DNA from: Diacronema lutheri
Lineage: Eukaryota; Haptophyta; Pavlovophyceae; Pavlovales; Pavlovaceae
NCBI GenBank assembly: GCA_019448385.1
Contig: JAGTXO010000010.1
Span: 992,001 to 1,056,000 of the forward strand
Direction of reading: 5' to 3'
Length of the DNA stretch: 64,000 nt
The notes beneath the pieces are model-generated. The model had not been told where the DNA came from and did not search any database. It saw nothing but the letters and a program-made list of their open reading frames with translations. A program made the position numbers and the translations under genes. The number at the start of each line of letters is the position of its first letter. Within the stretch, counting starts at the first letter, position 1. Positions 25,555 through 55,878 of the stretch are shown piece by piece.

Positions 25555-25754
25555 CTACGGCGCGCTTGGCTTCACAATGGGAGAAAGGGGTGGCGATGTG
25601 GGGAAAGGGGGCGGTGCGGCCGCGCCGGCGGCGGCGGCAACGCCAGCTGGCGGCGCGGCCGGGGCGAGCGCAGCGGCGGCCGCGGCCGCCGCCTGCGAGC
25701 GCGTCGCGCGCGCGGCTCCGGGGGGCGGCGGCAGCGGCGTGCGCGCCGACGCGC

Positions 25755-25787
<33 letters not shown>

Positions 25788-28700: not shown

Positions 28701-29628
28701 CGGCGCGCAGCGCGGCGCGCGCCACGGCGGCCAGGCCGGCGCGCGCCGCGACGAGGCCAGCGCGCACGGCGCGCCGCACAGCGCGCACTGCGCCGGCCAG
28801 GCCGGCGCGCGCGGCGGCGACGGTGGCGCGCGCGGCGGCGAGGCTGGCGAGCGGCGCGGCGATCAAGCCGTCGCGCGCGGCTGCGAGGCCGGCGCGCGGC
28901 GCAGCGCGCGCCGCGACGAGGCCAGCGCGCACGGCGCGCAGCACAGCGCGCACTGCGCCGGCCAGGCCGGCGCGCGCGGCGGCGACGGTGGCGCGCGCGG
29001 CGGCGAGGCTGGCGAGCGGCGCGGCGATCAAGCCGTCGCGCGCGGCTGCGAGGCCGGCGCGCGGCGCAGCGCGCGCCGCGACGAGGCCAGCGCGCACGGC
29101 GCGCAGCACAGCGCGCACTGCGCCGGCCAGGCCGGCGCGCGCGGCGGCGACGGTGGCGCGCGCGGCGGCGAGGCTGGCGAGCGGCGCGGCGATCAGGCCG
29201 TCGCGCGCGGCTGCGAGGCCGGAGCGCGGCGCAGCGCGCAGCGCGGCGGAGGCGGGCGCGACCGGCGGCGGCTCGTAGTAGGGTGGCCGTCGACCGAGGA
29301 ACCGATCGAGCGCTGCGCCAGCTGGCGCGGCGCGCGGTTGCGCCGCAGGCGCCCTTGCGGCGACCGCGCGGCGGCGGCGCGGCGGCGCGGCGCGCTCATC
29401 CTCCACGGCGGCTGCGGCGGCGCGGCGACGGCTGCGGACTGCGCCCAACGCGCGCGCCACGCCGCCCGCCACGCCACGAAGGCGCTCCGTGAGGCGCCCG
29501 CGGCCGACACGCCGTCGGCCGCAGGCGCGAGCCAGCGCCACGCGCCGAGCGCGAGCCTGGGCGCGGCGGCGAGCGCAGCCGTCAGCTCGGCAAGCAGCGC
29601 GACCAGCGCCGCGGCGACCGGCGGGCAT
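25555..29628 (-). CDS. Fanzor (TnpB-like RNA-guided nuclease) with long low-complexity N-terminus
   Basis: The Fanzor core starts near 27790 (TVKVKLADVVRDPAKLAYL) and runs to about 25800. RuvC-I is CIVAIDPGKKALISC (Asp codon at 26601-26599). The RuvC-II strand reads LIAMGDWSRGS, without the usual glutamate. DESYTSKLCS follows, with a Glu codon at 26028-26026, then a zinc finger (CSRPGC and CHCC), and RuvC-III FFDRDFSGARNIH (Asp codon at 25866-25864). These are the hallmarks of Fanzor proteins, eukaryotic relatives of IS605/IS607 TnpB. Upstream in frame lie a poly-Gly/RG tract (GRGRGRGRGRGEGGGG) and three 55-residue Ala/Arg repeats. The ATG at 29628 is only the farthest plausible start; splicing from upstream exons is likely. 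The tail after RuvC-III is Pro/Ala-rich. The core call is strong; the N-terminal limit is not. Confidence 0.8.
28744..29238. repeat. Three near-identical 165-bp tandem repeats
   Basis: Units begin near 28744, 28909 and 29074 and differ at only a few positions. The period divides by three, so the array stays in frame with the Fanzor N-terminal region and encodes 55-residue Ala/Arg/Leu/Val repeats (core DGLIAAPLASLAAARATVAA). The near identity implies recent expansion or conversion. Confidence 0.9.
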
Positions 29629-31061
29629 GCCGCAGCGGCAGCGCTGCCGGCCATGCAGGCGGCCGCGCTGCCGCACGCCAGCCCCGAGACACAGAGCGAG
29701 AGGGCAACCGCGCGCGCAGCGGCGCTCAGCGCGGCGTGCCCGCCAATGCGGCGCGCGCGCGGCCGCGCGTGCACCCGCCGCCGCGAGGTGCGCTCACGCC
29801 GGGCTTCGAGCCGCCGCTCCTGCCGCGAGAGCCGCGGCAGGCGCACGAGCAGGTCAGGCGGCAGCGGCGGCGTGCGCCGCGCGAGAAGCGGCTCGCGCGC
29901 GCGCGCGCCGTCTCGCGCGTCGTCTCGCGCGCCATCTTGCGCGCCGGCGGGGTGCGACAGCGCGCCGATGGCGTTGCCCGGCCTCGTGGAGGGTGCGCCG
30001 CCAGGCACGGCGCGCAGCGCGCAGCACGGCACTGCGACGTCGGCGCTGAACGCGCCGCGCGCGCAGAGGTTGGCGTCGGCATGCTGCTGCGCCGCCGCGT
30101 CGACGAGCGTGCCGCTGGCGCGGCGCGGCAGCGACGCGCTGACGCTGGCCGCGAGCGCGCCGTGCGCGGACGACGCGAGCGTGTCGGGGCGGAGGGCCAC
30201 CGTTGCGTCGACGGCGGCGGTTGCGGTGAGCCAGGAGCGCGCCTTGGTCGCAGCGCGGCCGAGCGCGGAAAAGGCGACGCGCGCGGCGTCATCCGCAACG
30301 GCGGGGGCGAGGTTGTGCGCGCCGTCCTGCAGCGCGCAGCCCGGCGCCGCGCCGAGCACGATGCCGGTCAACTCGCTCGAGTTGAGCGGGTGGGCGGCCG
30401 GAGCGACGCTCGCGAGCAGCGACTCGTCAAGCAGCGTGCCGCCCCGTGCCCAGCCCGCGCAAGCGCCGCCCGCCGGCCATCCGGTCGGCTTGGCGGCGGC
30501 GCCGCCGCCGCCTCGGCCGCAGCCGGCCGGCGCGCGCGCGCCGCCGATCGAGGCCGCGACGGCGCTCGCGGCGGAGCGTGCGGGCGTGGGCGCCAGCGCC
30601 GCGAGCAGCACGAGCGCCGCGAGCGCGAGCAGCGGCCCGAACCCCGCGCGCGCGAACAGCGGCGCTCGGCCACGCGGGCGCGGCGTGCCGCCCGACGGCG
30701 ACGCCGCTGCAGCGGCCGCGGCGGGAGGCTCGCCGCGCGCCCCGCGCGCGCCGCCGGCGGCGGAGGGCTCGCCGCTGCGCGCTGCGGGCGCGCCAGCGGC
30801 GGCGGCGGGCCCGTCCGCGCTCGCCAGAGGGAGGCGCTCAGACTCGATCGTCTCCTCTTCGAAACTCAATGTGACCCAGTTGGCCTGGCGCTCGATGCGG
30901 TCGGCGTGCTTGGCCTGCTCGTTGCCAACGTCCGCGCGCTGGCAGGAGTAGCGGTCGTCCGCGGTGAGGAAGGAGGACGTGCGCAAATGGTGGACGGCCA
31001 CGCGCGCTTGCTCGCGCTCGGCCGCGCTCAAAGCGCGGTCGCCCGCCCTGGCGACGAGCAT
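29193..31061 (-). CDS. Unrecognised membrane-type ORF upstream of the first Fanzor
   Basis: A 622-codon frame starts at ATG 31061 (MLVARAGDRALSAAEREQ). The first 75 residues look like a folded coding exon (VHHLRTSSFLTADDRYSC, HADRIERQANWVTLSFEEE). The frame also opens right after a CAG acceptor at 31068, so it could be an internal exon. Two hydrophobic segments follow (PLLALAALVLLAALAP, and a long Ala/Leu-rich one near residue 480) around a Ser/Ala-rich stretch containing LNSSELTGIVLGAAPGC. The 3' part overlaps the Fanzor reading frame in another phase, so one of the two frames there must be non-coding or joined by splicing. I cannot tell whether this is a separate gene or 5' exons of the Fanzor gene. 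Confidence 0.35.
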   Translation of the reverse strand: MLVARAGDRALSAAEREQARVAVHHLRTSSFLTADDRYSCQRADVGNEQAKHADRIERQANWVTLSFEEETIESERLPLASADGPAAAAGAPAARSGEPSAAGGARGARGEPPAAAAAAASPSGGTPRPRGRAPLFARAGFGPLLALAALVLLAALAPTPARSAASAVAASIGGARAPAGCGRGGGGAAAKPTGWPAGGACAGWARGGTLLDESLLASVAPAAHPLNSSELTGIVLGAAPGCALQDGAHNLAPAVADDAARVAFSALGRAATKARSWLTATAAVDATVALRPDTLASSAHGALAASVSASLPRRASGTLVDAAAQQHADANLCARGAFSADVAVPCCALRAVPGGAPSTRPGNAIGALSHPAGAQDGARDDARDGARAREPLLARRTPPLPPDLLVRLPRLSRQERRLEARRERTSRRRVHARPRARRIGGHAALSAAARAVALSLCVSGLACGSAAACMAGSAAAAACPPVAAALVALLAELTAALAAAPRLALGAWRWLAPAADGVSAAGASRSAFVAWRAAWRARWAQSAAVAAPPQPPWRMSAPRRRAAAARSPQGRLRRNRAPRQLAQRSIGSSVDGHPTTSRRRSRPPPPRCALRRAPASQPRATA

Positions 31062-39719: not shown

Positions 39720-39761
39720 TTTGACCCCGTTGGGGGCGTGGGTCAGCACCAGCTGGTATAT

Positions 39762-39779
39762 ACGACCCTTACGGGTCGT
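39762..39779 (-). other. 7-bp hairpin with the Fanzor-fusion stop codon in its loop
   Basis: On the minus strand ACGACCC and GGGTCGT pair perfectly around the loop GTAA, which contains the TAA stop of the Fanzor-fusion gene. A GTATATAC follows immediately. Structured RNA at exactly this place is expected of TnpB/Fanzor loci, whose guide scaffold overlaps the ORF end. A transcript-end signal is the alternative. Confidence 0.5.
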
Positions 39780-40174
39780 GCGAAGCCGCACGCGGCTCGT
39801 GCTGAGGCTGAAGAGCGCTGTGACGCGTCGTTCTCAGCAGGGTGTGGCAGGCGCGCTTGGTCGCGCCACCGGCTGCGCCGCCGCGCGGCGCCGCCGCGCG
39901 CGTCGCCGCGCGCGCGGGCGCGCGCGCGGCAGCGGCCGCGTCCTGTACGCCACTGCGGCTCGCCCGTGCCCGCTTCGGGGCCGGGGGCGCGGCGCGCATG
40001 CTCGGGCTGGCCGAGCCGCCCCGCCGCAAGGTCGCTGCCGACCGGCTGGGCGCTGCGCCGTTCGCGGCTGCCGTGTTGGCGCGACGCGGGCGCTTCGCCT
40101 CCGGCGCCGCGCCGCGCGCGGTCGCGAGCGAATCCCGCGCGTTGCCGCCGGTCGTGCCGGTGCCGGCAGCGGCA

Positions 40175-40216
<42 letters not shown>

Positions 40217-43200
40217 TGTGCGGCAGCGGCTGCGGCACCGTCGGCGGCGCCGGCAGCACCAGCACTGCCGCTGCGGCCGCGGCCGCGGCCGCGGCCGCGG
40301 TTTCCGCCGCCGCGTCCGCCGCCGCGTCCGCCGCCGCGTCCGCCGCCGCGTCCGCCGCCGCGTCCGCCGCCAAGGACGCCGCCAAGGACGCCGCTGCCGC
40401 TGCCGCTGGCGGCACCGCCGCCGCTGGCACCGCCGCCGCCGGCACCGCCGCCGCCGGCACCGCCGCCGCCGGCACCGCCGCCGCCGGCACCGCCGCCGCC
40501 GGCACCGCCGCCGCCGCCCGCCTCGTCCTCGTCCACCTGCAGCACGCCCTTGTCGTGCTCTCTCTCGCGCCCGAGGGCGCGCTGCCAAAAGGCCTTGACG
40601 CGCTTGAAGCGGCCGGGCTCGGACGTGATGCGCTCATGCCTGCCGAGGTGGTCGGCGATCATGTCGAGCACATCGTGGTAGATGCAGCGCGCCGCCGTCC
40701 AGTCGCGGTGGTAGATGATGCCGCACGCGTCGCACCGCGTCGCCCGCCACGCGCCGCGGCCGCTCGGCGAGCTGCGCGCGTACGGGTGCAGCGTGCCTCC
40801 GCATCGCTGCAGCGGCGGCGGCTGCCCCGCCGCCTCGTCCGCCGTCGTCGGCGCGCCGTCGTCGGCGGGAGCGCCTGCGCCGGCGTCGGCGGCCGGCGCC
40901 GCGCTCACAGCGGGCGCGCCCCGCACCTCGCGCAGCTCCGAACAGCACTTGGAGCTGAGCGGCTCGGGCACGAGCGTCGCCGCGACGCCGCGCCGGCGCA
41001 GCGCGTAGAGCACGCCGACGCCGAGCGCCGGCGCCTTGCCGCGCACGCAGCCGCCGCCGCGCGACCGGTGGAGCCAATCGCCGAAGAGCACGAGCAGCTG
41101 GTCTGGCCGCAGCCCTCGGTCGGTCGCGTGCACGCGCACGATCCGCGCCGCCGCGCGCGCGCACTCGCGCCGGTTCGCGCCGCCGCGCCGCTTGCGCGCG
41201 CGCGGCCGCGCGCGCGCGCCGTACACGGGCAGCGTAGCCCGTCGCACGCGCTCGTGCCCGCGCGCGTAGGCGACCTGGTCGTTCGCGCCGAGCGCGGTGC
41301 GCCCGCCGTGCGCCGCGCCGAGCTCCGCCTCGAGCGCGGCCGCCGTCGGCGGAGCACGCGGCGCGCGCGGCTGCGCGCCGCCCGGCCCCGACGGGCCGGC
41401 GCGCGCGCCCGGCTCGACGAGCGGCTGTTGCCGCGCGCCCTCGAGCTTGCTGCGCTCGCGCGCGTGCCCCGCGCGCGCGGCGCGCTCGCGCTGCGTGAGG
41501 CGAACCGAGGTGGGCTCGAGCCCGCGGCCGTTCGGCGCGTACGTCACGAAGCCGTCGGAGCCGGGGTCCACCGTGGCCGCTTTGAGGCCGCGCACCTCGA
41601 TCGCCTCGGCCAGCTGCTCGGGCGTCGCCTCGTCGAGCGTGCCGTTGGGATCGCGCCAATTGTCGAGGAAGGACTTGCTGCCGCCGGGCGGCGGCGGCTT
41701 GAACACCGGCACGACCGCCTGCCAGGCGTGGCCGTTGTGGCGCAGGTACACCGCCGGCTGCGGTCCGGCGGACGCGATCGCGGGTGGGACGGCGGTGCCG
41801 ACATGCGTGCGCCGCTGCTCCGCCGTCACGTCGCTGCTGGGCAGCTCCTCGCCCGTCCACCGCATTGCCCGCTCGTCGAGGTTGATAAAGTGGCCGAAGA
41901 TCATGTTCCTGACGCGCGGGTCGCTGACCGAGGTGCGCGGGTCGTCGTGCGGCACGCTGTCGGCCGTCGGCAGCTTGCACACCCACTCGCGGACGAAGGC
42001 CGTGTCGTCCTCGTCGAGCAGGAGGTACAGGTCCTGCGCGGACAGGTTGACAAAGCGCTGCTGCATGCTCCCGCGCCGGGGGCAGAGCGCGTACGGCGGC
42101 GGCTCTCCGGTGACGTGCGTGTAGAGCATGCCGAGGCGCGCGAGAAGCGACGCGCCCATCGCCGCCTTATCCGGCTGCGCGGCGCACGCGAGGGAAGGAG
42201 AGGGGGGGGGGGGGGGGGGGGGGGGTCGGAGAGCACGCCACCAGCGTCGTCGGGCGCTCCGCGCGCCGTGGCCCTGCTGCGCGCGCGCGCGGCACGTCGT
42301 CCGCACGGCGCGCGCCCGTCCATGCCTGGCCGCGGCGCCGCGCCGCGGAGCACGCGCGAGCGGGGCGCGCCGCGGCACGCGCGCGCGCCGCGCGGACGAC
42401 GCGGCCACCGTCGCGCGGCCGGCCCTTGCGCAGCCCCTCCGTCCCCGCGCGCGCCGCGCGCGCGCGCGCGCACCGTCAGGAAGTAGTTGGTCGTGTGCCT
42501 GACCTTGGGGTCATCCGTGCTGTAGTCGCATGGGAGCACGAGCCAGTCGGCGTGCTGCGCGAGCGCGGGCGGCAGTCGCGGCGCCGCGCCGGCCGTGTCG
42601 CCGGACCACAGCAGCTTGAGCAGCGCCGCGACGTCCGCGTCGCGCTGCTCATTCGACGTGCGCGTGCCGCGCGGCTTGGCGGCCTCGTCCGCGTCGACCG
42701 CCGCGCGCAGCAGCGCGCGCAGCAGCTTGTACGCGACGCGGCGCGGGTGCATCTTGTATGCGGTGAAGATCTGCTCCGCCTCGGTCGCGACGCAGCCTTC
42801 GAGCGAAAGGTGCGAGCGCGTCGCCGGCGCGTCGCCCTGCGACAGCCGGTCAATGTGCCGCCGGTTGCGCGCCCGCTGCGCCACGTTGGCCTCGCCGAGC
42901 GGATGGCCACGCTTCTGGTCGGGCGGCAGCTCGATCTGGCGGAGCAGGTTGAGCACGTCGTCCTCGTCCTTGGGGTAGCCCTCGAGCTCGTCGTCTGGGC
43001 GCTGCAGCTCGTCGCCGGGCGAGCACTGCCCGGCGTTCGGCAGCGATGTGTGCGCGCGGTCGTTGAGCACGTTGTACGTCATGCGCGTGCTGGCGTTCGC
43101 CTCGTCCACGACGTGCATCAGCTTGACGCCGTACTTTGCCCGCCCGCGAAAGGCGCCGTCGCTGAGCTCCAGGGTCCGGTACTCCGTGCGCCAGCCCCGC

Positions 43201-44322
43201 GGCTTCTGCAGGCAAGCGATGCGCTCGCCCGTCGCGTCCGGCGGCTCGGCCGGCGGCTCGGCGCTCGCGCAGCACGCGCAGGCGGACGCGTTGGCCGCGC
43301 CGGCCGCCGGCGCGGCCGTCCGCGCGGCGCGGCGCGGCGTCGCGGCCGGCTCCGCGCACGCGCCGCACGCGAGCGCGTCCCCGCCGACCGCGCCGGCCGC
43401 GCGCGGCCGCGCCGCCGCCGCACCGCGCCCGGACGCCGGCGCGGTGCTCACCGGCGACTTGAGGGCAGCGGCCTCGCGCTTGGCCTCCGCGCGCAGCCAC
43501 GCCTCGAGCAGCGAGCCGGCCGCCTGCGCGTCGCGCTCGCGCGGCCACACGCGCCCGGCGTTGCCGAGCAGGCCGCCGCGCTCCACGCGCAGCACGCACA
43601 GCGCGAGCGCGAGCGCCCACACGCCCGCGCGGCCGGCGGGCGGAACGTACGCACGCGAGCGCTCCGACCGGCGCAGCGGCTCGGGCGTCGCGCCAAGGCC
43701 GAACACACGCGTGACGAGCTCGCCCGCCCAGCTCGGCGCCGCCGCGCCCGCCGCGCCATCGCGCGGCTCGCGCTCGAGCAGGAGGAACCGGCGCCAGCGG
43801 CCGCTCGGACCTGCGCGGTGCTCGTCGGCGGCGAGCAGGAGGAGGAGCTGCGGGTCGGCGCCGTCGCTCGGCGAGTGGACGAGCAGCAGCGCGTCGCAGT
43901 CGGGATCGTCGAGGCGCTCGCGCAGCCGCTTTTGCGCGGCCCCGTGCCGTGCGTCGCGCGCGTCGAGCAGCGCGCGCGTCTCGCCCGGGCCGAAGAAGGC
44001 GCGGAACCCGCGCGCCGGGTCGCGCACCTGGGCGAGCACGCCGTCAATGGCGGCGGGCGCCACGACCGCATGCTTGCCGCCCGATGCCTTGAGCTCGTTC
44101 AGGCACCGCGCGTGAGGCTTCTCCGGCGTCAGCGCCGCCGACGCCGGCGCGGACGCCGGCTGCCGCGTCACCGCCGCGTCGCGCGCTCGCAGCCGCGCTG
44201 CCGTCTCGCGCAGGATGAGCGCAAACACCCCCGCGCGGTACTCGGCGAGCTGCGCCGTCGCGTGCACGTTGAGCGCAAGCACGCTCGCCGCGGCAGCGAG
44301 CGCGCTCTGGTCGCCGCCGCCA

Positions 44323-44361
<39 letters not shown>

Positions 44362-47300
44362 ACGTCGGCGGCGGCGTCACGCGCGCCGAGCGCGAGCCAG
44401 GACATGACCACGACGCAGGCGGCGCGCGAATCCGCCTTGCGCTCGACGCGCCAGCGGCCGCCGACCGCGCGCCCGTGCGCCGTCGGCTGCGCCGACCGCG
44501 CGGTCGCCGGCGCAGCGCCGTCGACGGGCGGAAGCGCGCGCAGGCGGAGCGCGCGCGCGAGCCCGCGGACGAGCTGCTCCGCCTGGCGCTCGATCTCCTT
44601 GGCGCGCTCGCGCACGGCGATCGGCTTGGCCCCCGTGGCGCGCTCCGGCGCGGCGGTCGGGTTGTAGTGCTGCACCCAGCCGCCCTCGCCGTCGCGCACG
44701 ACGACCACGACGGCCGCGCCGACCCGCCGATTGGTGCTGGCGAAGAGCAGCGCGAGGTGCGTGCACTTGCCGAGGCCGTGCTCGTCCAGCGCGGTCTGCG
44801 CGCGATTGGGCTCGCCGCCGCCGTCGGCGACGGCGGCGAGCAGCGCGCGCGCGACGGCCGGTCCGGCCGTCCTCCACGGCCGGCCGGCTTTGTCCGCGGC
44901 GCGGTTGATCGCGCCGAGCTCGGCCTCGACGACGATCGAAGGCACCTCGGTGTACTTGCCCTGGAGCGCGCGCACGTCGTGCGTCGACAGCGGCCGCCCG
45001 CCACACGTGTACGTGAGCGGCGGACCGCCGGGTCGCGCCGCCGCGTCGACGCGCGCGGTGTCGGCCGCGAGCCGCGCGCGCGCCTCGGCATCGCGCTTGC
45101 GCTTGCGCGGCAGCGGCGGCAGGTGCGGCGCGACGCGGCGGCCGCGCGACTCGCCGGCCGGCTCCGCGCTCGGCGCGCCGGGCGCGCCGGCCGCCGCGCC
45201 CGCCGCGCGCGCGCTCGCGCCGCCGCCGCGCGCGCGCGCGCCGTCCGGCTCGGCCGCGTACACGAGCAGCAGCGCGCGGCCCTCGGGCGCGACCCTCGCG
45301 GTGCACGCGCGCCTGCTCGCGGCGGCAACGCGCATCCAGTCGCGATCGCCGGGCGCGAGGGCAGCGCAGGCGACGAGCCGCTCCTTGTCGTCGCACGCGT
45401 CGCGCAGCACGACGGCGACCAGCCTGAGCACGGCGGCGGGCTCGGCGTCGGCGTCGGCCCCGGCGGCGTCCGCGGTCGGCTCGGCCGGCTCGGCGCCGCG
45501 CGCGACGCGCAGCGCGAGCCGCTCGGGCATCTCGAGCAGCGACTCGGTCGCGTCCGCGACGTGCACGACGACGAGCCGCGGCGGGTTGCGCACCCCGTGC
45601 GCGCCGAGCGCGCGCAACACGGCGGCGCTTGCGCTCGCGCCGCGCGCGTCGGCGGCGCGCAGCGCGACGAGCGGCCACGCGGCCGACGCGCCGCGCGCCG
45701 AGGGCGCGCCCGGCGCCGGCGGCTCGCCGCCGCGCAGCGCGCGCTCGAGCTCGTCGCTCGCGCCGCACGCGCGCAGCACGTCGAGCATCGCGCGCAGCGC
45801 GCCGTCGGCCGACAAGCCGCGCGCCGTGCCCGCCGGCCAGCCCGCCGACTGCTCGAGCGCGGCGGCGAGCGGCGCGACGCGCGCCGACTCGGGCGCGCTC
45901 TCGTCATCGGGCTCGAGCGCGTTGTGCAGGCGCGCGAGCGCGCGCGCGACGGCCGCGGCGCCACTGTCGGGGGCGCGGCTCGCCGCGCGCACCGCGCGCC
46001 GCCAGGCCGGCACGAACATGAGCGCCGACACGAGCGCCGCGAGCGCGCGCGCCTCGCGCGCGTCGCTCGCGCCGAGGCGCGGCGGCACGCGCGCGGCGCC
46101 GCGCGGCGCGGTGCCTCGGAAGCGTGGGCTTAGCGTGTAGGCGAGGTGCTGCGGCACGCCGCGCGCCTCCGCGAGCGCGCGTCCGTCCTCGACCTCGCGC
46201 CACGCCTTCACGATCGCCGGCGTGGCGCGCGCGAGCCAGTCGGGGTCGGCGGGCAGGTGGATCACGACGAGAATCGGCGCCCAGTCCAGCCGCGGGTTCT
46301 TGTGACGGTCGGGCACGACCCACACGAGCAGCACCGTGCCCTCCGCGCCGCACGCCGCCTCGTAGATCCTGGGCTGCGAGCGCCAATCGGGCTTGACGCG
46401 CAGCGCCCACGCGTGTTCGATGGCAGCGGCGCGGTCGCCATCGATGTGAACCGTCTTCACCTCGCCGATGACGGACCGGCCGGACCGCCAGCAGAACACC
46501 GCGTCCGCCGACCCGCCGGCGATGGCCGCGAGCGGTTCGGGCGCGGCGAGCCGCGGCAAGCCCTCGAAGACGGCAAAGTCCTCGTGCGCATTGTACACGC
46601 CGCCCCAGCCGTCGAGCGCGAGCGCGCGCGCGGCCGCTCGTACCGCGCGCAACTGGTTCTCCACGCCCGACGTCATGTGCCATGTCGTCCCCGCGGAGCC
46701 GGGCTTGCCCAGCTTGGCCAGCACGACGTTACCGTACCCCGCGCCCTGCGTCGGGGCGGCGAGGCGGTGCATCTCCGCGCCGGTCATGACCTCCGGGCGC
46801 TGCTGCGTGACGATCGTGCCATTCGCGTGCGCGTCGAGCGTGCCGACCACGGCGGGCGCGGGCTTGCCGCCCGCCTGAAGCCGCGCCCTGCCCGCTTCCA
46901 GCTGCGCGAGGTTCTTGGCGTCGTACACGCGCGCGTTGGTGTCGCCCTGTCCGAGCGCAGCGTAGACGCGGCGGCGTTCGAGCGGCGCCGAGCCACCGCC
47001 GTCCGCCGCCGCCGGCGAGGTTGTGGCCGCGCCCGCCGCCACCGAGTTCGTCGCCGCCGTGCTCGTCACCACCACCGCCGCAGCCGCCGCGCCCGCGCGT
47101 GGCGCGCACGGCGCCCTCGGTGCCGTGACGGCCGCCGCCGCCGCCACGACGAGCGCGCCCGCCGCCGCGTTCGCCGCCACGTGCGCCACCGGCGCGCCGA
47201 GCGGCGCCGAGCCACCGCCGCCCGGCGCCGCCGGCGGGGTTGGCGCCGCGGCCGTGGACGCGGCGGCGGAGCGCGCCGCGAGCGGCACGTCCCACCGCCA

Positions 47301-50087
47301 GCGATGCGCCGCAACGGCCACGGCCGCGCGCTCGACGCCGTCGCGCGCGTCGGGCAGACCGGCGATGTGCGCGTTCGCACTGCGGCACATCTCGTCTGGG
47401 CTCTTGCACCGCGCCCACGCGTCGCCGAGGTCGTGGCACACGACCGCACGCGCGAGCAGCGCGAGCTCGAGCGCAAGGACGTGCGGCTGCGCGCGCGCGT
47501 CGCCGCCGATCGCGACGTCCGTCGGCTCCGCGCTGAGCAGCTCCGCGTGGCGCAGCTCGCTGACGTGCGCGCGCGCGATGCGCCAGTCGTCGTCGCCGCC
47601 GACGCGCGGCGCGACGAGCAGCGGCTTCGCGACGGCGCCCGCCGCGCGCGGCGGCGGCACGACGAGCAGCGCCACGACCCGTCCGCCTGTGCACTCGCGC
47701 AGCGCGACGACGAGCCTGGAGGGGAGTGACGGCGTCGACCGGCGCGTGCGTTTGCGGACGCCGTCGGCGGCGGCCGCGCTGCGCGCATCCGCGAGCGCAG
47801 CGTCGCCGTCGCGCGCCGCCCACGCGCCGTCGACGTGCGCGCGCGCGAAGAGCGGCGCGAGCTCGGCGGCCGCGAGCGCGGCGCACGCCAACGGCGCGTC
47901 GGCCCCGCCGCGCAGCACGGCGAGCGCGTCGCGGAGCGGCGGCGCCGTGTCCGTCGCCCACCGCCAAACGTGCTCGCCGCCCGCGTCGAGCGCGCGCGCG
48001 ACGGCGCACAGGCGCGCCTCGTCGGCCGCGTCGGCCACTCGGCGCGTCGGCGCGTGCGGCTCGACGCGCTCGTACAGCGCGACCACGGCGAGCTCGCGCA
48101 CCTCGGCCGCCGCGCTGCCGGCGTTGTCTCGCTGCTTGCCGCCGCCGTCGACGCGCCACCAGCCGCCGTCGGGCGCGGGCGCGAGCACGGCGCACGCATC
48201 GCGTTTGCGGCCGCGGCGCTGGACGAGCACGCTCGCCAGCGCGAACGTCGCGTCGGGGCCGCCGACGGTGCGGAGCACGAGCGCGCCGCCACCGCCGCCG
48301 CCCGGCCCGCCGAGCTCGACCGGCTCCTTGTCGGCCGACGGGCGGTCGATCGCGACCAGCAGCGCGCGCGGCGCGCGCTCGAGCCGCACTTCGCCGAGCA
48401 GCTGGGCGACGCCGCGCACGCCCGGCGCGCCACGCTGCCCCGGCCGCGGCGCGACGCGCAGCATCGTGAACGGCGCGGCGGCCGAGCCGTCTTCGCCGGC
48501 GCAGACGCCGGAGAAGAGCGGCAAGTCGGGCAGGGCCACGTGCAGCTCGGCCACGAGCCGCTCGGCGACGCGGCGCGCGTCGCGCAGCTCGTCCGTGCGC
48601 CGCCGCGAGCGCTCGGCAGCGCGGCGCGGGTCGCGCAGCGCGAGCAGCAGCTGGCGGAGGCGCAGTCGCGCGCGCACGTCCGACGGCCGCGCGACGCGCA
48701 CCAGCAGCGAGCGCAGCACCTCAAAGGGCGCGCGCTTCGCGTCCAGCGCGTCGCCGCGCGCGCCGCCGGACGGCGCAAAGGCGAGCGCCAGCTGCTCGCG
48801 CACAGTCGCGGCGGCCGCGAGCAGCTCGAGCACCGCCTCGGGGCTGGCCAGCGCGAAGTCCTCGGGGGCTGCCGGCGGCGAGCCTTGGTCGCCGCCGCCG
48901 CCGCCGCCGCCGTCGCCTCCGTCGCCGTCGGCGGAGTCGTCGTCGGTGTCGTGACCCGCATCGTCGTCGGCGAGGTCGTCGTCCCCGTCCTCCGCGTCCT
49001 CCCCGTCGTCAGCGGTGGTGGCGTCGCCATCGTCCCCGTCGCCCTCGCCCCCGCCGAGGCTGCTGAATGGTCGGTGCCCCCACGCCGAGGCGGCGCGCCG
49101 CTGCGGCGCACGCGGCGGTGGCGCTCGCGACCGCGGCCTTGGCGCCGCCGCGCCGCGCGGCCTGGCCGCCGTCGACAGCACGCGGCCTGCAGCGCCCGTG
49201 AGCGCGTCGAGCGCGGCCGTGCGCGCGATGCGGTCGTCGGGCGCGCGCAGCGCCGCGTCGACGGCCCGCAGCAGCCCGTCGGGCGCGGATTCGCCGACAC
49301 AGGCACCGCACGCCTCGGCGAGCCGCGCGGCCCCGTCGCGCGACGCGCCGAAGCGCCTGGCGGGGTCGTCGAGCAGAGCGCCGATGGCGGCGCGGAGCGT
49401 GCGCTTGCGGGTCTCCTCGTACGCGGCCGTCGTAAGGCGCGTGAGGCGCGCGTCCAAAGCCTTCTTGATCCCGACAAGGACGTTCGCGCGGCGGCCCGCC
49501 GTCGTCGCTGCGCTCGCCGCGACCTCGGCCGCGAGTGTTGCCGCGGCGAAGCAACACTCGGTCCCACTCTGCGCGGGCGCCTTCAAGGCATCGATGGTTG
49601 GCGCTGCGATGCCGATGCGCTGCGCGAGCGCCTTGATGAGCTTGCCGGCCGCCGTGGCGTGCGCCGACTGGCCGTTGCCCAAGCCGAGCGAATCGGCGTG
49701 CAGGGCGAGCGCGGCGCCGGGCGGCGCGCCGGGCTGCGCGGGCGGCGCGATGAGCAGGTACGCCGCCGTCCAGTGCGCGAGGCCGCCGGACACGAAGAGG
49801 CAGAGCGGTAGCACGACCACGAGCACTTGCCCATTTTCGTGCGCACCCTCGCGTGCTTGGCCCAGTTTGTCCAGCGCCACGTCGAGCGCAGGCCGCGAGC
49901 ACGCCTCGTAGCTCACCTTGTCCACGCTCGGGCCGAGATTCTCGCCATGCAGCAGGGCGAGGACGCAATTGGATGGGACCACGTGGGGGTGGCGCACACC
50001 CGGCGGCAGAATGGTGCGGAGGGCCAGCGAGAAACTGTCCGAGCTGCCCAGCCCGCCGCGCAAAGCGTCCTTCACGGAGTCCTCCAT
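39769..50087 (-). CDS. Giant fusion: Ulp1-like, USP-like and PD-(D/E)XK-like domains with C-terminal Fanzor nuclease
   Basis: Exons 50087-42474 and 42174-39769 encode about 3,339 residues, starting at ATG 50087 (MEDSVKDALRGGLG). Residues 20-190 look like a Ulp1 (C48) cysteine protease: His105 in AHWTAAYLLI, Asp132 in HADSLGL, Cys178/179 in SGTECCFAAA. Residues about 535-675 and 1500-1615 resemble USP C-terminal halves (RLVVVHVADATESLLEMP, ALLLVYAAE), with the histidine box degenerate. Residues about 1130-1260 carry a PD-(D/E)XK pattern (Asp1195, Glu1209-x-Lys1211, Gln1238-x3-Tyr1242). Further protease-like segments lie near 1770-1900 and 2080-2200. The Fanzor spans about 2290-3060, with RuvC-I Asp2741 (TVDPGSDG), GDWLHRS, Glu2942 (PEPLSSK), zinc-finger cysteines (CDAC) and RuvC-III Asp3029 (YHRDWTAARC). 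An RGG tail follows. Further introns cannot be excluded. Confidence 0.72.
40290..40515. repeat. Trinucleotide-rich minisatellites in the Fanzor tail
   Basis: Consecutive runs of a CCGCCGCGT-like 12-mer and of CCGGCACCGCCGCCG-type 15-mers encode, on the minus strand, Gly-rich blocks (GGGAGGGGAGGGGAGGGG) and an RGG box (GGGRGGGRGGGRGGG). A GCG run near 40180-40215 encodes polyalanine. These expand easily, so their length may differ between strains. Confidence 0.85.
42175..42473 (-). other. 299-bp phase-0 intron with 24-nt C tract, inside the Fanzor core
   Basis: The donor GTGCGC follows the codon for T in NYFLT. The acceptor GCGCAG at 42180-42175 comes after a pyrimidine tract whose core is 24 consecutive C (G at 42202-42225 on the plus strand). 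The length, 2 mod 3, moves the reading frame exactly from the upstream frame into the Fanzor C-terminal frame. The spliced junction NYFLT-PDKAAMGASLLARLGML matches the equivalent region of the other Fanzor (GYFTVQPQFVASAYASMLR). Confidence 0.85.
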
Positions 50088-50235
50088 CTGCAAACTGTAG
50101 ACACGTCCGTGTCCGGATGGCGTCTCCAGATGATCCTCTGGAGAATTTCCCGCTCTCCCATTCACTCGGCCCGGATGATACTTTCGAGAATTACCTGATA
50201 CCCTGAAGAATTCCCCGCTCTCCCACTCACCTTGT
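50088..50235. repeat. Subterminal repeats upstream of the giant Fanzor-fusion gene
   Basis: A 23-bp sequence, GAATTYCCCGCTCTCCCAYT plus CAC, occurs at 50143-50165 and 50208-50230 (21 of 23 identical). An additional GAGAATT piece lies between. An inverted pair TCTCCAG/CTGGAGA lies at about 50122-50144. The stretch is AT-richer than its flanks and just 5' of the ATG at 50087. It is either the promoter or the outer end of the inserted unit. No matching terminal repeat was found at the other end. Confidence 0.6.
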
Positions 50236-52534
50236 TCACGCTCGCGGGCGCAACCAGGATCCGCCAGCGCGTCGAGCCTTCTCGTTTGGCCGCGCCGCCT
50301 CCCTTTGCGTGCCCGAGCGTGGCCTCCGAGCGCGGCCGACGTCCTCCCGGGGGTGTGAATCGTGGCTGCCTGGAGGGGCTGCGACGGGGCGCAAGCACGC
50401 CGCGCGGCCGCAACGTGAGCGCGCACGCGCGGCCGCGCGCCGGCCTGCGCTGTTCTGCTTCCTCTGGGCGGTGGGCTCGGAGGATGCGTGCGCGGCGGCG
50501 TTGGCGGCGGGTATGGCGGCAGGCTGAGCGGCGCGCTGGGCGGCGGGCTCGGCGGCGGGCTTGGACGGAGAGTGTCGAGGAAGAACGGGACGCATCCTGG
50601 TCAAGGAGCCGGACGGCGCTCACCTCCTGTTCCCCCTCCTCCCCCCCTCCCCCCCCCCCCCTCCCCCCCCCCACACCTCTCACCCCCTCCTTTCCCCCCC
50701 GAGATGAAGACCAGGGGCATGGCCGACTCGCTGCGCCGCACAGCGCGCGGCGGGCGGCATGCTGCGCGAGCTGAAGCACATCCGGCCGCGCTCCGCCCAC
50801 GCGACGCGCGCAGAGCCGCATTGCACTGCAGATGTGCACGCGCGGCACACGCGCGCACTGTGCTGCACGAACGGCAACACGCCAGCCAGCTGCGTCCGGA
50901 CCACGCGCCGCGCGCAGGCGACCGCACAGGGGCGCGCCGCGCCGCGCGTGCGCGCCCTCGCAACCGTTGCAGGACGCTCTGCTCTGCACTGCGCCGAGCC
51001 GCCGCGCGCTGTGCGCGTGCACGCAGGGCGCACGCGCGCGGCGAAGCGCGCGGACGGCAGCGCGCATAGCTGCGCCCAGGCCAGGCCAGGCGCGCGCCCG
51101 CGGGTGCCACTGGGACGCACTGCCCCCGCCGGGGTCGCCGCGCGCTCTGTGTGTGCGCTCGCGCGCTGCGAGCGCGGCGGAACGTTCGTGCATGGCGCGA
51201 AGAGTGCGGCACCCGAAGACGGCTGCACAGAGCCCGCGCCGGGTGGCAGCGAGCGGCGGCAACTCCTCGGCGAGCCCGCCCCGCGCCTTCCCCTCCATGT
51301 GGCGTTTTGAGGCAGACGGCCACGCACCCGCACTGCGACTGGGCACGCTGCTCGAGACAGACACTCACCCAACGCGCGCGCACCACGCGCCCGCGCCGGC
51401 GTGACGGCGTGAACGAGCGAGAGTTCGGTGTCGCCAACGGGGCCGCGAAATGTCCGCCAGTGCGGCTCGCGGAAGTGGCGCGCGTGCGCGTGCGTCGTGG
51501 AGCGGCACAGGAAGTATGACTGCCAAAGCAGGGCGGTGGGCCCGTGCACACCTCGTGCGGCACGCGCGACGCGAAGCGGACGCAGTTGAGGCCGCCGGCC
51601 TCGCCGAGCACGGGCTCGTACGTGCGCTCGCCGCGCCCGACAGGGGCAAGGGACGGTGCACGTGGCGATGGCCTTGTGGATGCGCGACGGGGCGTGACTG
51701 TACTCCTCGGAGTCGCACGCGCGCCGCGCAGCCACCGGCGATCGCCACCGCCTGCGCAAGCCGCCGCCGGCTACGCCGTGCACGTCGGCGTGGACGGGCG
51801 GGTGCGCTTCGCCGCCGACGTCGAGCAGAGCGCCGCGTCGTCGAGACCGTATGGTGCGACGGCGCGCGCGGCGACGATGTCGACCATTGCCAGCGCGCGC
51901 GGCACGAGCTCGTCCCGGAAGGGCAATTTGCCGCGTGCCTCGCGCCATCAACATCCACGCTGCCGCAGCTTCCCCCGATGCGCAGTCTCGTCAGTGCGGC
52001 CGCCGTTCCGATAAGGGGGCGCGAGGGCGAGGGCGCCCGCTGCCCTAGGGCTGGAGACCCCGTCGGGGGGCGGGGGGCGGGGGCCGTGGGGCGGAGGGCG
52101 AGGGCGCGTCGCGACACGGACTCGACACGCCGACACGATCTCGAGGGTCGAGGGATTGGGGCCGAGGCTCGGCGGCGGCCGGGTCTGCGACTCCGAGGCG
52201 TCTGGCCGTCTCGGCGTGTGGCAGTGGCGAGGGCCGGCGCGGCCGATGCACGGCCGGGTCCACGTGGCCGGCCGGGTGCGAGGCGAGGGCCGGCGGCGGG
52301 TGCAGGGCCAGGTGCTGCGAGGCGGGCAAGCGTGGCGTGCAGGCAGTCGCGGTCCGAGCGGGAGCGCGCGCACGGCGGCGGCGTAGTCGCAGGCGCAGGC
52401 GTGCCCGCGGCGCAGGCGTGCCCGCGCGCTCGGCCGAGCGCGAGTCAGACGGTGGTGGCCGCGCGCGGCGTGCGCGCCGCGGTCCGACGGCGCGAGCGGC
52501 GGCGCGATCGCGGACGGTCGGTGGCGCGCGTCGG
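50236..52534. other. Poorly resolved region without a secure gene
   Basis: Long frames are open on both strands but mostly look like GC-bias artefacts. Coding-like patches exist. On the minus strand LPFRDELVPRALAMVDIVA (near 51870-51930) and GGLNCVRFASRVPHEVC (near 51560-51600) lie in different frames. On the plus strand an ATG-started frame at 50759-51310 is Cys/His-rich (phrase RAEPHCTADVHARHTRALCC). A pyrimidine tract at 50630-50700, almost all C and T, could precede a plus-strand acceptor. This may be a decayed or multi-exon gene. I cannot assign a product. Confidence 0.3.
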
Positions 52535-52668
52535 CTAGAAGCCCTCCGGCAGCGCGAGCTGGCCGGCGAGCGGGCCGGCGGCGGCGTCGGCGTTCGCGAC
52601 GTTGGCAGCGACGGGCTCGATGTCGCTGAGTCCGCCGCGGCGACGGCGAGCACGCCTTTGACGACGCC

Positions 52669-53944
52669 TTAGGCCTTGCTGATGGTGCGTTGGCCGTCGA
52701 CGGCGCGCACGGCCACGCGCCCGCCGAGCCGATGCCCGAAGGCGCAGCGCAGCTCGAGGAGCGCGAGCCGCGTGCGAGTTGCGGCGGGCGCATCGGGCAT
52801 GGTGGCGAGCAGGCGCGCGAGGTGTCCGAACGCGTGGGCGCCAAGCTCGCCGAGCAGCAGCGGCGGCGGCTGGCCGTCGGGAACGAGCGGCGCCGCGGCT
52901 GCAACGGGCGTCGCAGCGAGCGCGAGGGCGCGCGTGAGCGCGTCGTCGAGCTCGCGAGCACCACCAATGGAGCCTTCGGCGGCGGCGGCGCGCACGCGCA
53001 CGACCGCGGCCTGCACTGCGCGTTGCGCGGTGTGCAGCGAGCTTGCGTACGGTCGAGCGCACCGCAGGCAAGTCGCCCATGCCCTCGCCGTGCGCGAGGC
53101 GCAAGTCCAGGAGGTGCAGGCGCATGGCGGTCTGGTTGTGCGCATGGCGCAGGCTGGAAAGGCATGCGCGCAGAATCGCGTACTGCGCCCGGCCGAGGGC
53201 ACGCTCGAGTCGACCGGCGGCGTCGGCGGCGAGAGCATGCCCTGCGGTGCGGGAGGTGCTCGCGCCGGCGTGCGTGGTGCCAGGCGCGGCGCTGCCGGTC
53301 GCGTCTGTCGCGTCGCCTGCCACGCCCAGAGCGCGCGCGCTGCCGCCGCGCGCAGCCACGTTCGCACCAGTCGGTGCCAGGCGCTGGCGCACGGCACGGC
53401 CACTCGTGCCGGCGGAGGCGGCGGGAGCGTTCGCCGCGGAGCGGCCGATGCCGGCGGCGGCCACGGGTGCGTTGAGCGCCGCGCCGTCGGTCGTGGCGCC
53501 GAGCGCGTGCAGGCCGCCGCCGGCGTGCGCAGTGACAATCGGGTGGGCCGCCGGGCGCACAGCACGCGCAAGTCCAGGCGGAGCAGCGAGGCCGGCGGCG
53601 GCCAGTGCTGCATTGAGCGCAGCGCCGTTGGTCGTGGCGCGCGCGGCGCTGAGCGGGCGGACGCCGCCGAAGGCGTGCGCGTGCGCGGCAGTCGGCGCGA
53701 GGCGCGGGCGCACGGCACGGCCACCGGTGCCTCCGGAGGGCGAGTGCGCGCGCGGTCTGCCACCGCCACCGCGCCGCGGCTCGGTCGTGGCGGCGCGCGC
53801 CAGCGCTCCCTGGGCGGCGGCGCGCGGCGGCGACGGCAGCGACGGCGACGGCGGCGGCGAGACGCAGGGGTCGTCCGGGGGAGCGGGCGAGGGTAGCACG
53901 CAGCACTCGGTGGCGAGGAATGCCGCCAACGACCCGCGCGCCAT
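52669..53944 (-). CDS. Unknown two-exon protein with internal repeats
   Basis: Exons 53944-53063 and 53010-52669 give 407 residues. A 52-bp intron (donor GTGCGCTCG, acceptor AGTGCAG) resolves a frame change and has the same donor as other introns here. The N-terminal 230 residues contain repeated modules (GRAVRPRLAPTAAHAHA versus GRAVRQRLAPTGANVAA; NGAALNAALAAAGL versus DGAALNAPVAAAGI). The C-terminal half holds two related helical units (QTAMRLHLLDLRLAHG and ATRTRLALLELRCAFG). The ATG at 53944 (MARGSLAAFLATECC) fits a start. A further intron could instead join exon 2 to a coding-like stretch ending at 52535 (PVAANVANADAAAGPLAG). I recognise no family, and the gene's link to the Fanzor unit beside it is unknown. 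Confidence 0.45.
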
Positions 53945-54180
53945 CTCGGAGGAGCGCGGCCGCCCAGCGGGCTGAGGAAGAGAGGCTCTCGCTCAGTCGC
54001 GGCTGGTCATCCACCGAAAAGTGCGCGCCACCACCGCTCGCTTTCCCGTTGGCCGTTTCAACGGTGACGAACCCGTGGGTGAAACTCGTCTCGATTACAT
54101 ATTATGAGCATCTCAATGCACATGGCTCGCCTCCCACCTCACAGCTCTGTTTAAAAAGCTGCAGGGGTCTCCAGGGTTTG

Positions 54181-55878
54181 TCACGTCTTCAAGCGGTTGC
54201 CTGCTGCAGAACGACGCGAGCGTGTCGACGAGCACCGCGTCGTAGCGATGCCAAACCGCGCATGCGACGCGCATGAAGCACAGCTCGGTGACGTCGCCGG
54301 AGGCGCGCTGCGCCCGCCTAGCGGGCTCCACATGCCGATCACCACACGCGTCGTCGCCTCGCTTCTCAGGCGGTGCAGCAGCGCGGCGCGCTCGGCGCCG
54401 TCCTGGAACACCGTGGGCCGAGCGCCAAGCGGCACGTGGCAGACGCGCCCTCCGATGGTCTGCCCATGCACGCGCAGCACGACCTCGCAGCATGCGCCCA
54501 CGGTGGAGGCGAGCATGGCGCCGCCCGCGATGCAGTCCACCTCTGCCTGCGGGATGCCGGCGCGCGCGGCAGCGTCGGCCCGCCGGAGCGCAGCCGTGTC
54601 GCCCGCCCGCCCGAGCAGGAGCGGGGCGGCGGGCTGGACGCCGCGCTGCGCCACGGCGGGCTCGGCCGCGGCGGGCTGGGCGGCGGCTGGCGCGGTGGCG
54701 GCTGGCGCGGCGGCGGCTGGCGCGGCGGCGGGTGGGTCGGCGGCCGGCGGTTGGGTGGCAGGCTGCGGCGCGGCCACGGCGGCGGTCGGGCGGGCGGCGG
54801 CAGGCTCGCGGCGGCAGGCTCGGCCTCGTGTGCCTCGCTGCGCGCTGCGCGCCCGAGTGCCGCTCGCCCAAGGACGGCCGGCCGGCCGCTTTTCGTCTCG
54901 CTGCCGCGCATCGCACGGCATCGCCGCGCCGTCGCGCCGCCTGGGCGACGGCCCGCGCCCGTCGCGCGCATCGCCTGCGCTTGCGCCCGAGCGAGAGGAG
55001 GCTGCGCCCCGCGCCTCGCGCGCCGAGTCGCCTCCGCGATGGCCGCCTCGGCGGCGGACACGTCCGCCTCGGGCAAGAAGAGCGGCTCGAAGCGGTTGCT
55101 CGCGCGCACGCTGGCGTGCGGATGGCGCGGCGACAGAGCAGCGAGCCGACCGCCTACGCCCGCGCCGCGGCCTGGCCGCGCTGACTAGCCCGGTCGCGAA
55201 CGGCGCTCGGTCACGCAGTGCGAAGAGACCCGCGTCGATAGGTCCGAGCGCGGCCCCCGCGTTCTCGCAGCCCCTGACGCCGACGAGCGGCAGCAGCGCC
55301 TGCACGAGCCGCGCCGGGAAGAGCCGCGTGTCGTCCTCGATCTTGGTGAAAAAGGCCGTGCGCGGATGCGTGCGGGCTGCCCACACGAAGAACTCGCGCG
55401 TCTTGCGCGCGCAAATCCATCTACTTGGTGCGCAAGCCACCCTCAACGACGGTGGTCATCAAGCCGTCGCCGTGAGCCTCCATCTCTTCTCGGACAGCTT
55501 CGCTCACGGCGGCGTCGCGGTTCACGCCGTGCAGAAATACGAACTTATGATGGCCCGCACGTGCAGCGGGCCGGTCACCACCGTCGACCGGAAGAGCAAG
55601 CGCCGGTCGGTGCCCGTCCGGCTTGGCAAGGGTGCTCGCGCTTTCGGCAACGGCCTGGGCACGTCCGTCTCGCCGACTTTGCCCCTGGCGACCTTGGCCA
55701 ACGAGCTCACCTCGCGCCGCGACAGCGCACTCAGGGTGACCCCAAAAAGCTCCTCTCGGCGAATTCTAACCGCGTGCGCGCGTGGCGCGCGCTGAGCGCG
55801 CTCCTCTTCCCAGCTCCATGCAGAGTGCTCAAGGGCGGCGACTCGACCTCGGGCATGCCGCGCAACTGCCCATGCCAT
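54181..55878 (-). pseudogene. GT31-like galactosyltransferase remnant or heavily interrupted gene
   Basis: Pieces in three frames match the order of a beta-1,3-galactosyltransferase (GT31): HHKFVFLHGVNRDAAVSEA and EEMEAHGDGLMTTVVEGGL near 55440-55545, then TREFFVWAARTHPRTAFF with the DxD-like KIEDDTRLF near 55315-55410, then LVQALLPLVGVRGCENAG. A 22-bp segment with an in-frame stop separates the first two at 55430 and does not behave as a GT-AG intron. Downstream is a Pro/Ala-rich repeat region and a coding-like C-terminal part (VDCIAGGAMLASTVGACCEV, YDAVLVDTLASFCSRQP) in shifted frames. Either a decaying host gene or several tiny introns explain this; I lean to decay. Confidence 0.4.

What the first reader, a model, noticed from the sequence alone, without database searches (positions are those of the whole stretch)
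39769..50087. A predicted 3.3-kilo-residue protein joins protease-like and nuclease-like domains to a complete Fanzor
The upstream frame is open for 2,538 codons and joins the Fanzor frame through one clean intron. Known Fanzors are usually about 400-1,000 residues, sometimes neighboured by transposase genes. A single protein with a Ulp1-like fold, USP-like halves, a PD-(D/E)XK-like nuclease and an RNA-guided nuclease is, to my knowledge, not a described architecture. It could couple ubiquitin/SUMO removal at chromatin to DNA cutting, or be a polyprotein-like mobile-element product.
Basis: partly seen in the sequence, partly recalled or inferred. Interest (0 to 1): 0.88.

Follow-up and report, generated by a model that had tools for sequence, protein, structure and literature searches.

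The report
Giant Fanzor protein in jumping element
An alga's genome carries a jumping DNA element whose predicted gene puts an RNA-guided DNA cutter (Fanzor) at the end of a giant protein of more than 3,000 residues, a design not found in the papers searched here and one that could show what such cutters do for mobile DNA.

Summary
The gene model holds: minus strand, ATG 50087, one 2,538-codon exon, a 299-nt GT..AG intron, Fanzor exon to 39769; 3,339 residues. The coding signal keeps one frame and changes frame at the intron. The C-terminus is Fanzor-like: DPG, shifted glutamate, zinc finger, RD; a family profile hits the solved Spizellomyces Fanzor (E=5e-5). Protease and PD-(D/E)XK labels rest on motifs only; searches gave nothing significant. 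The locus is a mobile element, 39755-55875, in Diacronema lutheri: 10 of 10 fetched relatives end at the same place, 13-14 nt beyond the stop, in different flanks, and 19 of 19 close relatives keep the order nuclease-like segment, then that end. A sister group (110 loci scored; one copy read in full, about 31 kb) has a PIF1 helicase whose best solved relative is Helraiser, and an ORF joining a chromodomain (E=2.5e-12) to the Fanzor's first exon. Hairpin ends and variable 5' ends suggest a Helitron2-like element, a kind known to carry separate Fanzors; no Rep domain was found. The giant fusion is new to the papers searched. Copies look neutral; no transcript was available.

The parts
39755..55875 (-). 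The mobile element copy (16,121 bp); Fanzor end at 39755 or 39756, far end at 55875
   Evidence: BLAST ends of 10 of 10 fetched copies at 39752-39756; 55875 is the shared end of this copy and those on C78 and C53
42474..50087 (-). Exon 1, 2,538 codons, ATG to donor
42175..42473 (-). Intron, 299 nt, GT..AG; same donor and acceptor sequence found in 10 of 10 copies, length 293-332 there
39769..42174 (-). Exon 2: Fanzor RuvC/zinc-finger part and a low-complexity tail; stop at 39769-39771
49158..50087 (-). N-terminal domain (residues 1-310) with Ulp1/C48-like H105, D132, Q173, C178/C179
   Evidence: motif reading; these residues are invariant in 3 of 3 sequences aligned; no profile support
46098..46970 (-). 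PD-(D/E)XK-like segment (residues 1040-1330; SADAVFCW..IGEVKTV)
   Evidence: motif reading; 129 loci match a query from this segment, P0005; no profile support
42474..43217 (-). Fanzor N-terminal part (residues 2291-2538), before the intron
   Evidence: aligns with an unspliced Fanzor of the same window across the splice
40564..42174 (-). Fanzor RuvC core and zinc finger: D2741-P-G, E2942, SSKCC 2945-2949, C2996, CxxC 3019-3022, RD 3028-3029
39762..39779 (-). Terminal hairpin ACGACCC-GTAA-GGGTCGT; the stop codon lies in its loop
   Evidence: 60-nt end: z = -3.5, 0 of 200 shuffles fold as well
51443..55875 (-). 5' segment shared in full only by the C86/C78/C53 copies; 54204-54785 is 75% identical to a stretch of the sister element's ORF

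Best explanation
The finding is the protein gene of a large rolling-circle-type (Helitron2-like) DNA element of Diacronema lutheri. Shown: a repeated element with one fixed end just behind the Fanzor stop codon, variable other ends, a terminal hairpin, and a single predicted gene in which a Fanzor is the C-terminus of a giant protein; a sister element of about 31 kb begins its gene the same way, has a PIF1 helicase upstream, hairpins at both ends, and a chromodomain in the same ORF as its Fanzor's first exon. Inferred: the window copy lacks the helicase and is moved by helicase-bearing relatives; the Fanzor, guided by an RNA read from the hairpin end and the flank behind it, cuts the matching empty site so that the element is copied back or kept; the N-terminal modules process the polyprotein or act on ubiquitin/SUMO-marked host chromatin proteins; the chromodomain of the sister form tethers it to chromatin.
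For: Fixed 3' end in 10 of 10 fetched group-A copies with different flanks. Of 14 fetched internal loci with the group-B Fanzor, 13 end at the same base and 1 three bases short, flanks different. 7 of 7 fetched internal group-B 5' ends start GGCGCGGTCC behind a TATA-like flank (of five contig starts also fetched, four show this end and C70 does not). All 19 of 19 group-A loci have the 3' end 6.2-7.2 kb downstream of the nuclease-like segment; 33 3' ends (27 at 88-100%, 6 at 80%) stand against 19 such segments. 5' ends vary. Hairpins. PIF1 helicase E=1.7e-15, best PDB hit Helraiser E=1.5e-7, 8.5-9.0 kb upstream of the segment in 87 of 110 group-B loci and 10.0-10.9 kb upstream in 4 of 19 group-A loci. 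A 13-bp duplication at 1 of 4 insertions with both flanks read, inside the 7-19 bp of Bao and Jurka's Helitron2 Fanzor elements. Fanzor signatures, profile hit to SpuFz1, chromodomain in the sister ORF.
Against: No Rep (HUH) domain: PF14214 rings once in the genome, on C63, outside the copies read, and by eye none is evident in the 3.3 kb before the helicase. No TC/CTRR ends; no asymmetric terminal inverted repeat established. 3 of 4 insertions with both flanks read show no target duplication. The group-B 3' end folds no better than shuffles (z about -0.2). Copies differ as if neutral (NG86 dN/dS 1.34 over 36 pairs of 9 copies), so no selection on the fused protein is seen; 10 of 19 group-A loci have frames shorter than 2,645 aa. 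No transcript or protein evidence was available.
Confidence: 0.6

Rival explanations
1. Mobile element as above, but the long frame is not one protein: a Fanzor mRNA starts internally (at one of the Met codons near residue 2324 of the fused protein) and the upstream ORF is a separate product of the same element that happens to be in frame.
For: Fanzors in the papers seen are separate proteins; an Ala/Cys/Pro-rich linker (residues 2216-2290) lies before the Fanzor part; 14 of 33 group-A 3' ends have no scored group-A nuclease-like segment upstream.
Against: No stop and no loss of coding frame between the two over 7.6 kb; in the sister element too the Fanzor's first exon is in one ORF with the chromodomain.
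Confidence: 0.25
2. The element is not a Helitron: a giant element of another kind (Crypton-like, virus-derived or new) that carries a PIF1 helicase and uses its PD-(D/E)XK-like or Fanzor nuclease for movement.
For: No Rep found; large size, about 31 kb; a YqaJ-like recombinase hint in the sister ORF, E=0.011, below cut-off.
Against: Helraiser is the best PDB hit of the helicase; hairpin ends, variable 5' ends and one TSD behave like the Helitron2 Fanzor elements of Chlamydomonas. Three scans of viral contigs found no relatives.
Confidence: 0.3
3. The upstream frame is a GC-rich artefact; only the Fanzor is coding.
For: The window is about 67-83% GC and long chance frames exist, e.g. 1,339 aa on the other strand; no significant profile hits upstream; copies show no purifying selection.
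Against: 0 of 500 Markov sequences reach 2,538; coding signal in 24 of 25 windows, nearly all outside the training part; ATG and donor stay in one stop-free frame in 8 of 10 fetched copies, which were however chosen partly for long frames.
Confidence: 0.03

Closest known systems
CRe-1, -2, -3 Fanzor1 elements of Chlamydomonas reinhardtii (Helitron2; Bao and Jurka 2013, PMC3627910)
   Same: Fanzor carried by an algal rolling-circle element, hairpins at both ends, intact 3' ends with 5' truncation, TSDs of variable length (passages)
   Different: There the Fanzor is a protein of its own in 5 or 10 exons; here it ends a protein of 3.3 kilo-residues or more; elements of 16-31 kb; Rep not found here
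SpuFz1, the solved Fanzor of Spizellomyces punctatus (PDB 8gkh; PMC10432273)
   Same: RuvC part, aligned over positions 150-406 of our 540-position profile; D/E/D active-site pattern (passage)
   Different: 638 residues, single ORF in a roughly 2.1-kb locus (passages)
Helraiser (Helitron transposase, PDB 7lcc)
   Same: Best PDB match of the sister element's PIF1 helicase, over 58 residues
   Different: Rep and helicase in one protein and no Fanzor (recalled)
Chromodomain-bearing LTR-retrotransposon polyproteins (PMC6338049)
   Same: Accessory chromodomain in a mobile-element polyprotein (passage)
   Different: Those have reverse transcriptase and integrase; no such Pfam match in the frames scanned here

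Membership tests
Fanzor | D-X(125-275)-[TS][TS]-X-X-[C4 zinc finger]-X(5-50)-RD (Bao and Jurka) | tested here: met
   D2741, S2945-S2946 (204 apart), C2949, C2996, C3019, C3022, RD3028; the first zinc knuckle is split by ~46 residues
Fanzor | DPG at RuvC1 and glutamate six residues before the zinc finger (Yoon et al., PMC10711439) | tested here: met
   DPG at 2741; E2942-PLSSKC-C2949. Sister group B keeps the glutamate but has DPN
Fanzor | Profile similarity to known Fanzor/TnpB | tested here: met
   For this copy PF07282 E=1.3e-4, 22.4 bits, below the 26.3 cut-off, and NCBIfam none; three relatives are above the PF07282 cut-off; 8gkh E=5.4e-5 with a profile of all four
Fanzor | RNA-guided DNA cleavage with RNA from the 3' end | not testable with these tools
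   Only a foldable 3' end was seen for the window copy (z -3.5); the group-B end folds no better than shuffles
Helitron2 | PIF1-type helicase | tested here: met
   In the sister element (87 of 110 loci) and upstream of 4 of 19 group-A loci; not listed in the window copy (150 of 414 candidates scored, no match at E<1e-25 to the sister copy's first 10.4 kb)
Helitron2 | Rep (HUH) endonuclease domain | tested here: inconclusive
   PF14214 finds one locus, on C63; a diverged Rep is not excluded
Helitron2 | Hairpins at both ends | tested here: met
   Group B: 5' palindrome GTACGACCCGGGTCGTAC (80-nt end z -2.0, 6 of 200 shuffles as good) and a 7-bp 3' hairpin; window: 3' hairpin. The window copy's own 5' end was not folded
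Helitron2 | Asymmetric terminal inverted repeats | tested here: inconclusive
   Read by eye on the ends; none established
Helitron2 | One-ended copies: intact 3' ends, variable 5' ends | tested here: met
   10 of 10 fetched copies share the 3' end while 5' ends differ; 33 3' ends against 19 upstream segments, the 14 extra ones not read
Peptidase C48 (Ulp1) | H, D, Q, C active site in a C48 profile | tested here: inconclusive
   H105/D132/Q173/C178 invariant in 3 sequences; no Pfam or PDB match; not among the 9 hits of the C48 scan of the genome
Peptidase C19 (USP) | USP profile match | tested here: not met
   No significant Pfam or PDB match in the 2,899-aa frame
PD-(D/E)XK nuclease | Profile match with D..(D/E)xK core | tested here: inconclusive
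   D and EVK invariant in 4 of 4 group-A sequences; no match; in the C9 sister copy the K reads T

The most novel reading that the evidence does not exclude
A new class of giant rolling-circle elements makes a single multi-enzyme protein in which chromatin-tethering and ubiquitin/SUMO-protease modules are covalently joined to an RNA-guided nuclease, so that one polypeptide opens or deregulates chromatin at a guide-matched site and cuts it, driving copy number above 100 in a compact genome.
Probability: 0.25. Interest if true: 0.92.

Novelty: new variant of a known kind. Interest (0 to 1): 0.78.

Why it matters
What Fanzors do for their elements is open. Here is a cultivable alga with many near-identical, apparently recent copies (76 loci scored with the sister Fanzor exon at 99-100% identity), a fixed 3' end 13-14 nt behind the Fanzor stop codon, and a Fanzor fused to other modules. 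It makes guide RNA, target motif and partner functions testable, and it suggests an RNA-guided nuclease as part of a giant polyprotein.

Tried and rejected
Rejected: chance frame in GC-rich DNA. Rejected: LINE-type retrotransposition as the cause of variable 5' ends, because no reverse transcriptase was among the Pfam matches of the frames scanned (not every frame was scanned) and the intron is kept in 10 of 10 copies. Rejected: natural chromosome ends; contigs start at element edges because the assembly breaks there. Rejected as evidence: dN/dS above 1 as positive selection, since codon-position ratios within group A are near the non-coding expectation; window against group B is somewhat higher (42/48/19 and 23/30/12 differences at positions 1/2/3), which by hand chi-square is not significant. 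Led nowhere: viral contigs (21, 88 and 0 pattern matches, 0 relatives), PHROGs, PDB search with the YqaJ-like stretch, internal repeats of the protein (none). The literature claim rests on the listings (28: 40 of 82 papers listed; 43: 15 of 129; 114: 10 of 95) and on passages of PMC10432273, PMC10711439, PMC3627910 and PMC6338049; PMC8379373 was also seen as passages. No paper was read whole and no supplements; subscription papers are mostly not held.
Full report
Where it is. The window lies in an assembly of 43.49 Mb in 103 contigs, with contigs of 3,042,068 and 852,258 bp. Diacronema lutheri NIVA-4/92 is published with 43.50 Mb, 103 contigs, a longest contig of 3.042 Mb and 852.26 kb (passages). 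The identification is by these statistics.

The gene. On the minus strand an ATG at 50087 opens 2,538 codons; a GT at 42473 and an AG ending at 42175 bound a 299-nt intron; exon 2 runs to the stop at 39769; the product has 3,339 residues. The next longest stop-free run in the window is 1,412 aa, and 0 of 500 Markov sequences reached 2,538. Codon-position composition favours the predicted frame in 24 of 25 windows of exon 1 (exception 47300-47001, an Ala-rich linker), falls in the intron, and favours the other frame in 6 of 6 windows of exon 2 down to 40401; the tail below that has no such signal. The model was trained on exon 2 and on 42474-43100, so the exon-1 windows above 43100 are the test. 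The Fanzor homology runs across the splice when aligned to another, unspliced Fanzor of the same window (25555-29793) and to a third from the genome.

The Fanzor. Signatures: DPG at 2741, Gly-Asp-Trp at 2903, E2942 six residues before C2949, SS at 2945, C2996, CxxC at 3019, RD at 3028, compared with the definitions in PMC3627910 and PMC10711439 (passages). PF07282 is below its cut-off for this copy (22.4 of 26.3 bits) and above it for three relatives. A profile of four Fanzors of this genome finds SpuFz1 first in the PDB (E=5.4e-5), then weakly Cas12m, TnpB and Cas12f (E 0.02-0.2).

The upstream 2,290 residues. Pfam, NCBIfam and PHROGs found nothing, and the PDB only low-complexity matches (E 0.05 or worse). 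By eye the first 310 residues show H105, D132, Q173 and C178-C179 in Ulp1-like spacing, invariant in three sequences from groups A and B, and residues 1040-1330 show D..EVK; neither has profile support. The USP-like label is not supported. I keep these as leads.

It is a mobile element. The nuclease-like segment has 129 scored loci of 200 candidates in the genome: 19 at 91-100% identity (group A, the window included) and 110 at 88-89% (group B). In 19 of 19 group-A loci the element's 3' end lies 6.2-7.2 kb downstream, start to start, on the same strand. I fetched ten of the 18 other group-A loci. All ten lose similarity to the window at 39752-39756, 13-14 nt behind the stop, and continue in unrelated flanks. 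The end reads as a hairpin, ACGACCC-GTAA-GGGTCGT, then ATATAC; its loop holds the stop codon; none of 200 shuffles of the last 60 nt folds as well. The other end varies: one copy (C46) breaks at window 50148, two more stop short, six run to the end of what I fetched, more than 7 kb upstream of the ATG. The window copy shares its far end, 55875, with the C78 and C53 copies; that end lies 19 nt behind the stop of a mitochondrial-carrier gene, so this copy is a 16,121-bp element.

State of the copies. The window and eight of the ten fetched copies read from ATG to donor without a stop and on to a stop in exon 2, giving 3,249-3,417 residues; in two of the eight (C85, C46) the last residues differ; two copies are broken upstream. 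Over all 19 group-A loci, nine have frames of 2,645 aa or more. NG86 dN/dS over all 36 pairs is 1.34. Divergence at codon positions 1:2:3 is 0.040:0.044:0.031 for window against C85, near the 1.2:1.5:1 that I worked out by hand from the per-base rates of the non-coding upstream DNA; window against C6 is higher (0.043:0.049:0.028) and window against group B higher still on small counts. So I read the copies as drifting neutrally after insertion; their intactness shows youth, not constraint.

The sister element. One group-B copy read in full (C9, about 31.0 kb) starts GGCGCGGTCC behind a TATA-like flank and ends ATCTATAC. The start was the same in 7 of 7 fetched internal loci (this one included) and in four of five contig starts; the end in 13 of 14 fetched internal loci with this Fanzor, some of which may belong to a further variant. 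Its gene begins with the same MEDSVKD and nuclease-like segment; a second frame of 4,504 aa carries Pfam Chromo (E=2.5e-12, over cut-off), a weak YqaJ match (E=0.011, under cut-off) and the Fanzor's first exon, and a further frame carries the Fanzor core. Seven of 110 group-B loci have frames of 3,752-6,136 aa around the segment, as if the first two frames were joined there; why they are split elsewhere is open. At least 76 loci carry this Fanzor exon at 99-100% identity, so the group spread recently. Upstream lies a PIF1 helicase (E=1.7e-15; best PDB hit Helraiser, E=1.5e-7), found 8.5-9.0 kb before the segment in 87 of 110 group-B loci and 10.0-10.9 kb before it in 4 of 19 group-A loci, with 150 of 414 candidates scored. 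Nearly 9 kb upstream of and into the C85 group-A gene is 96% identical to group B: both groups are one family.

What it most likely is. PIF1 helicase, hairpin ends, a fixed 3' end with variable 5' ends and a 13-bp duplication at one of four insertions read on both sides fit the Helitron2 group in which Bao and Jurka described Fanzor elements of Chlamydomonas with TSDs of 7-19 bp (passages). A Rep domain was not found, so membership stays open. How it works is inferred: rolling-circle copying by helicase-bearing relatives; a Fanzor guided from the 3' end; upstream modules as polyprotein processing or action on host chromatin.

Novelty. Searches for Fanzor alone and with Ulp1, Helitron, haptophyte, chromodomain and multidomain listed no paper that by title or abstract start describes such a fusion, and the terms tried in three main Fanzor papers found none. 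Fanzor in a Helitron2 element is known; the giant fused protein, the chromodomain and the scale are new to these sources.

Noticed in passing
window 25555-29793 (-): A second, more canonical Fanzor in the same window (PF07282 27.0 bits, 31.8; DPG, TSKLC, RD) in a 1,412-aa frame with repeats upstream; it lies outside the element described here.
   Followed up: partly
window 10892-11428 (+): The best-scoring PIF1 helicase hit of the genome scan (E=7.2e-41, 732-aa frame); host gene or another element, not resolved.
   Followed up: no
G000 C26, C6, C29, C12, C1 (first bases); C32, C49, C69, C72: Five of six fetched contig starts lie within about 15 bases of the group-B 3' end (C8 starts ~190 short), and four of five others at or near the 5' end, so the assembly breaks at these repeats and copy numbers are lower bounds.
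   Followed up: partly
G000 C27:67485, C27:149628, C14:234932, C17:203048: A second PIF1 family (463-aa frame) lies about 17.3 kb upstream of the same group-B Fanzor without a scored nuclease-like segment, suggesting a third variant.
   Followed up: no
L001-L008: A distinct high-copy Fanzor family (PF07282 43.9-44.5 bits) in the same genome; 148 PF07282 loci from 150 scored of 306 candidates.
   Followed up: partly
L038 from 8431: In the C9 group-B copy the nuclease-like ExK reads EVTT, so that module may be dead there while intact in the window copy.
   Followed up: no
window 51443-55875 (-): Pieces of this 5' segment (mainly query 1805-3579) occur at some two dozen or more other places at 82-93% identity, so the element is a mosaic of repeat modules.
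   Followed up: no
L066-L072: Seven of seven fetched group-B insertions sit behind TATATA[C/G] (6) or TATAGAG (1), a candidate target or TAM-like motif.
   Followed up: partly
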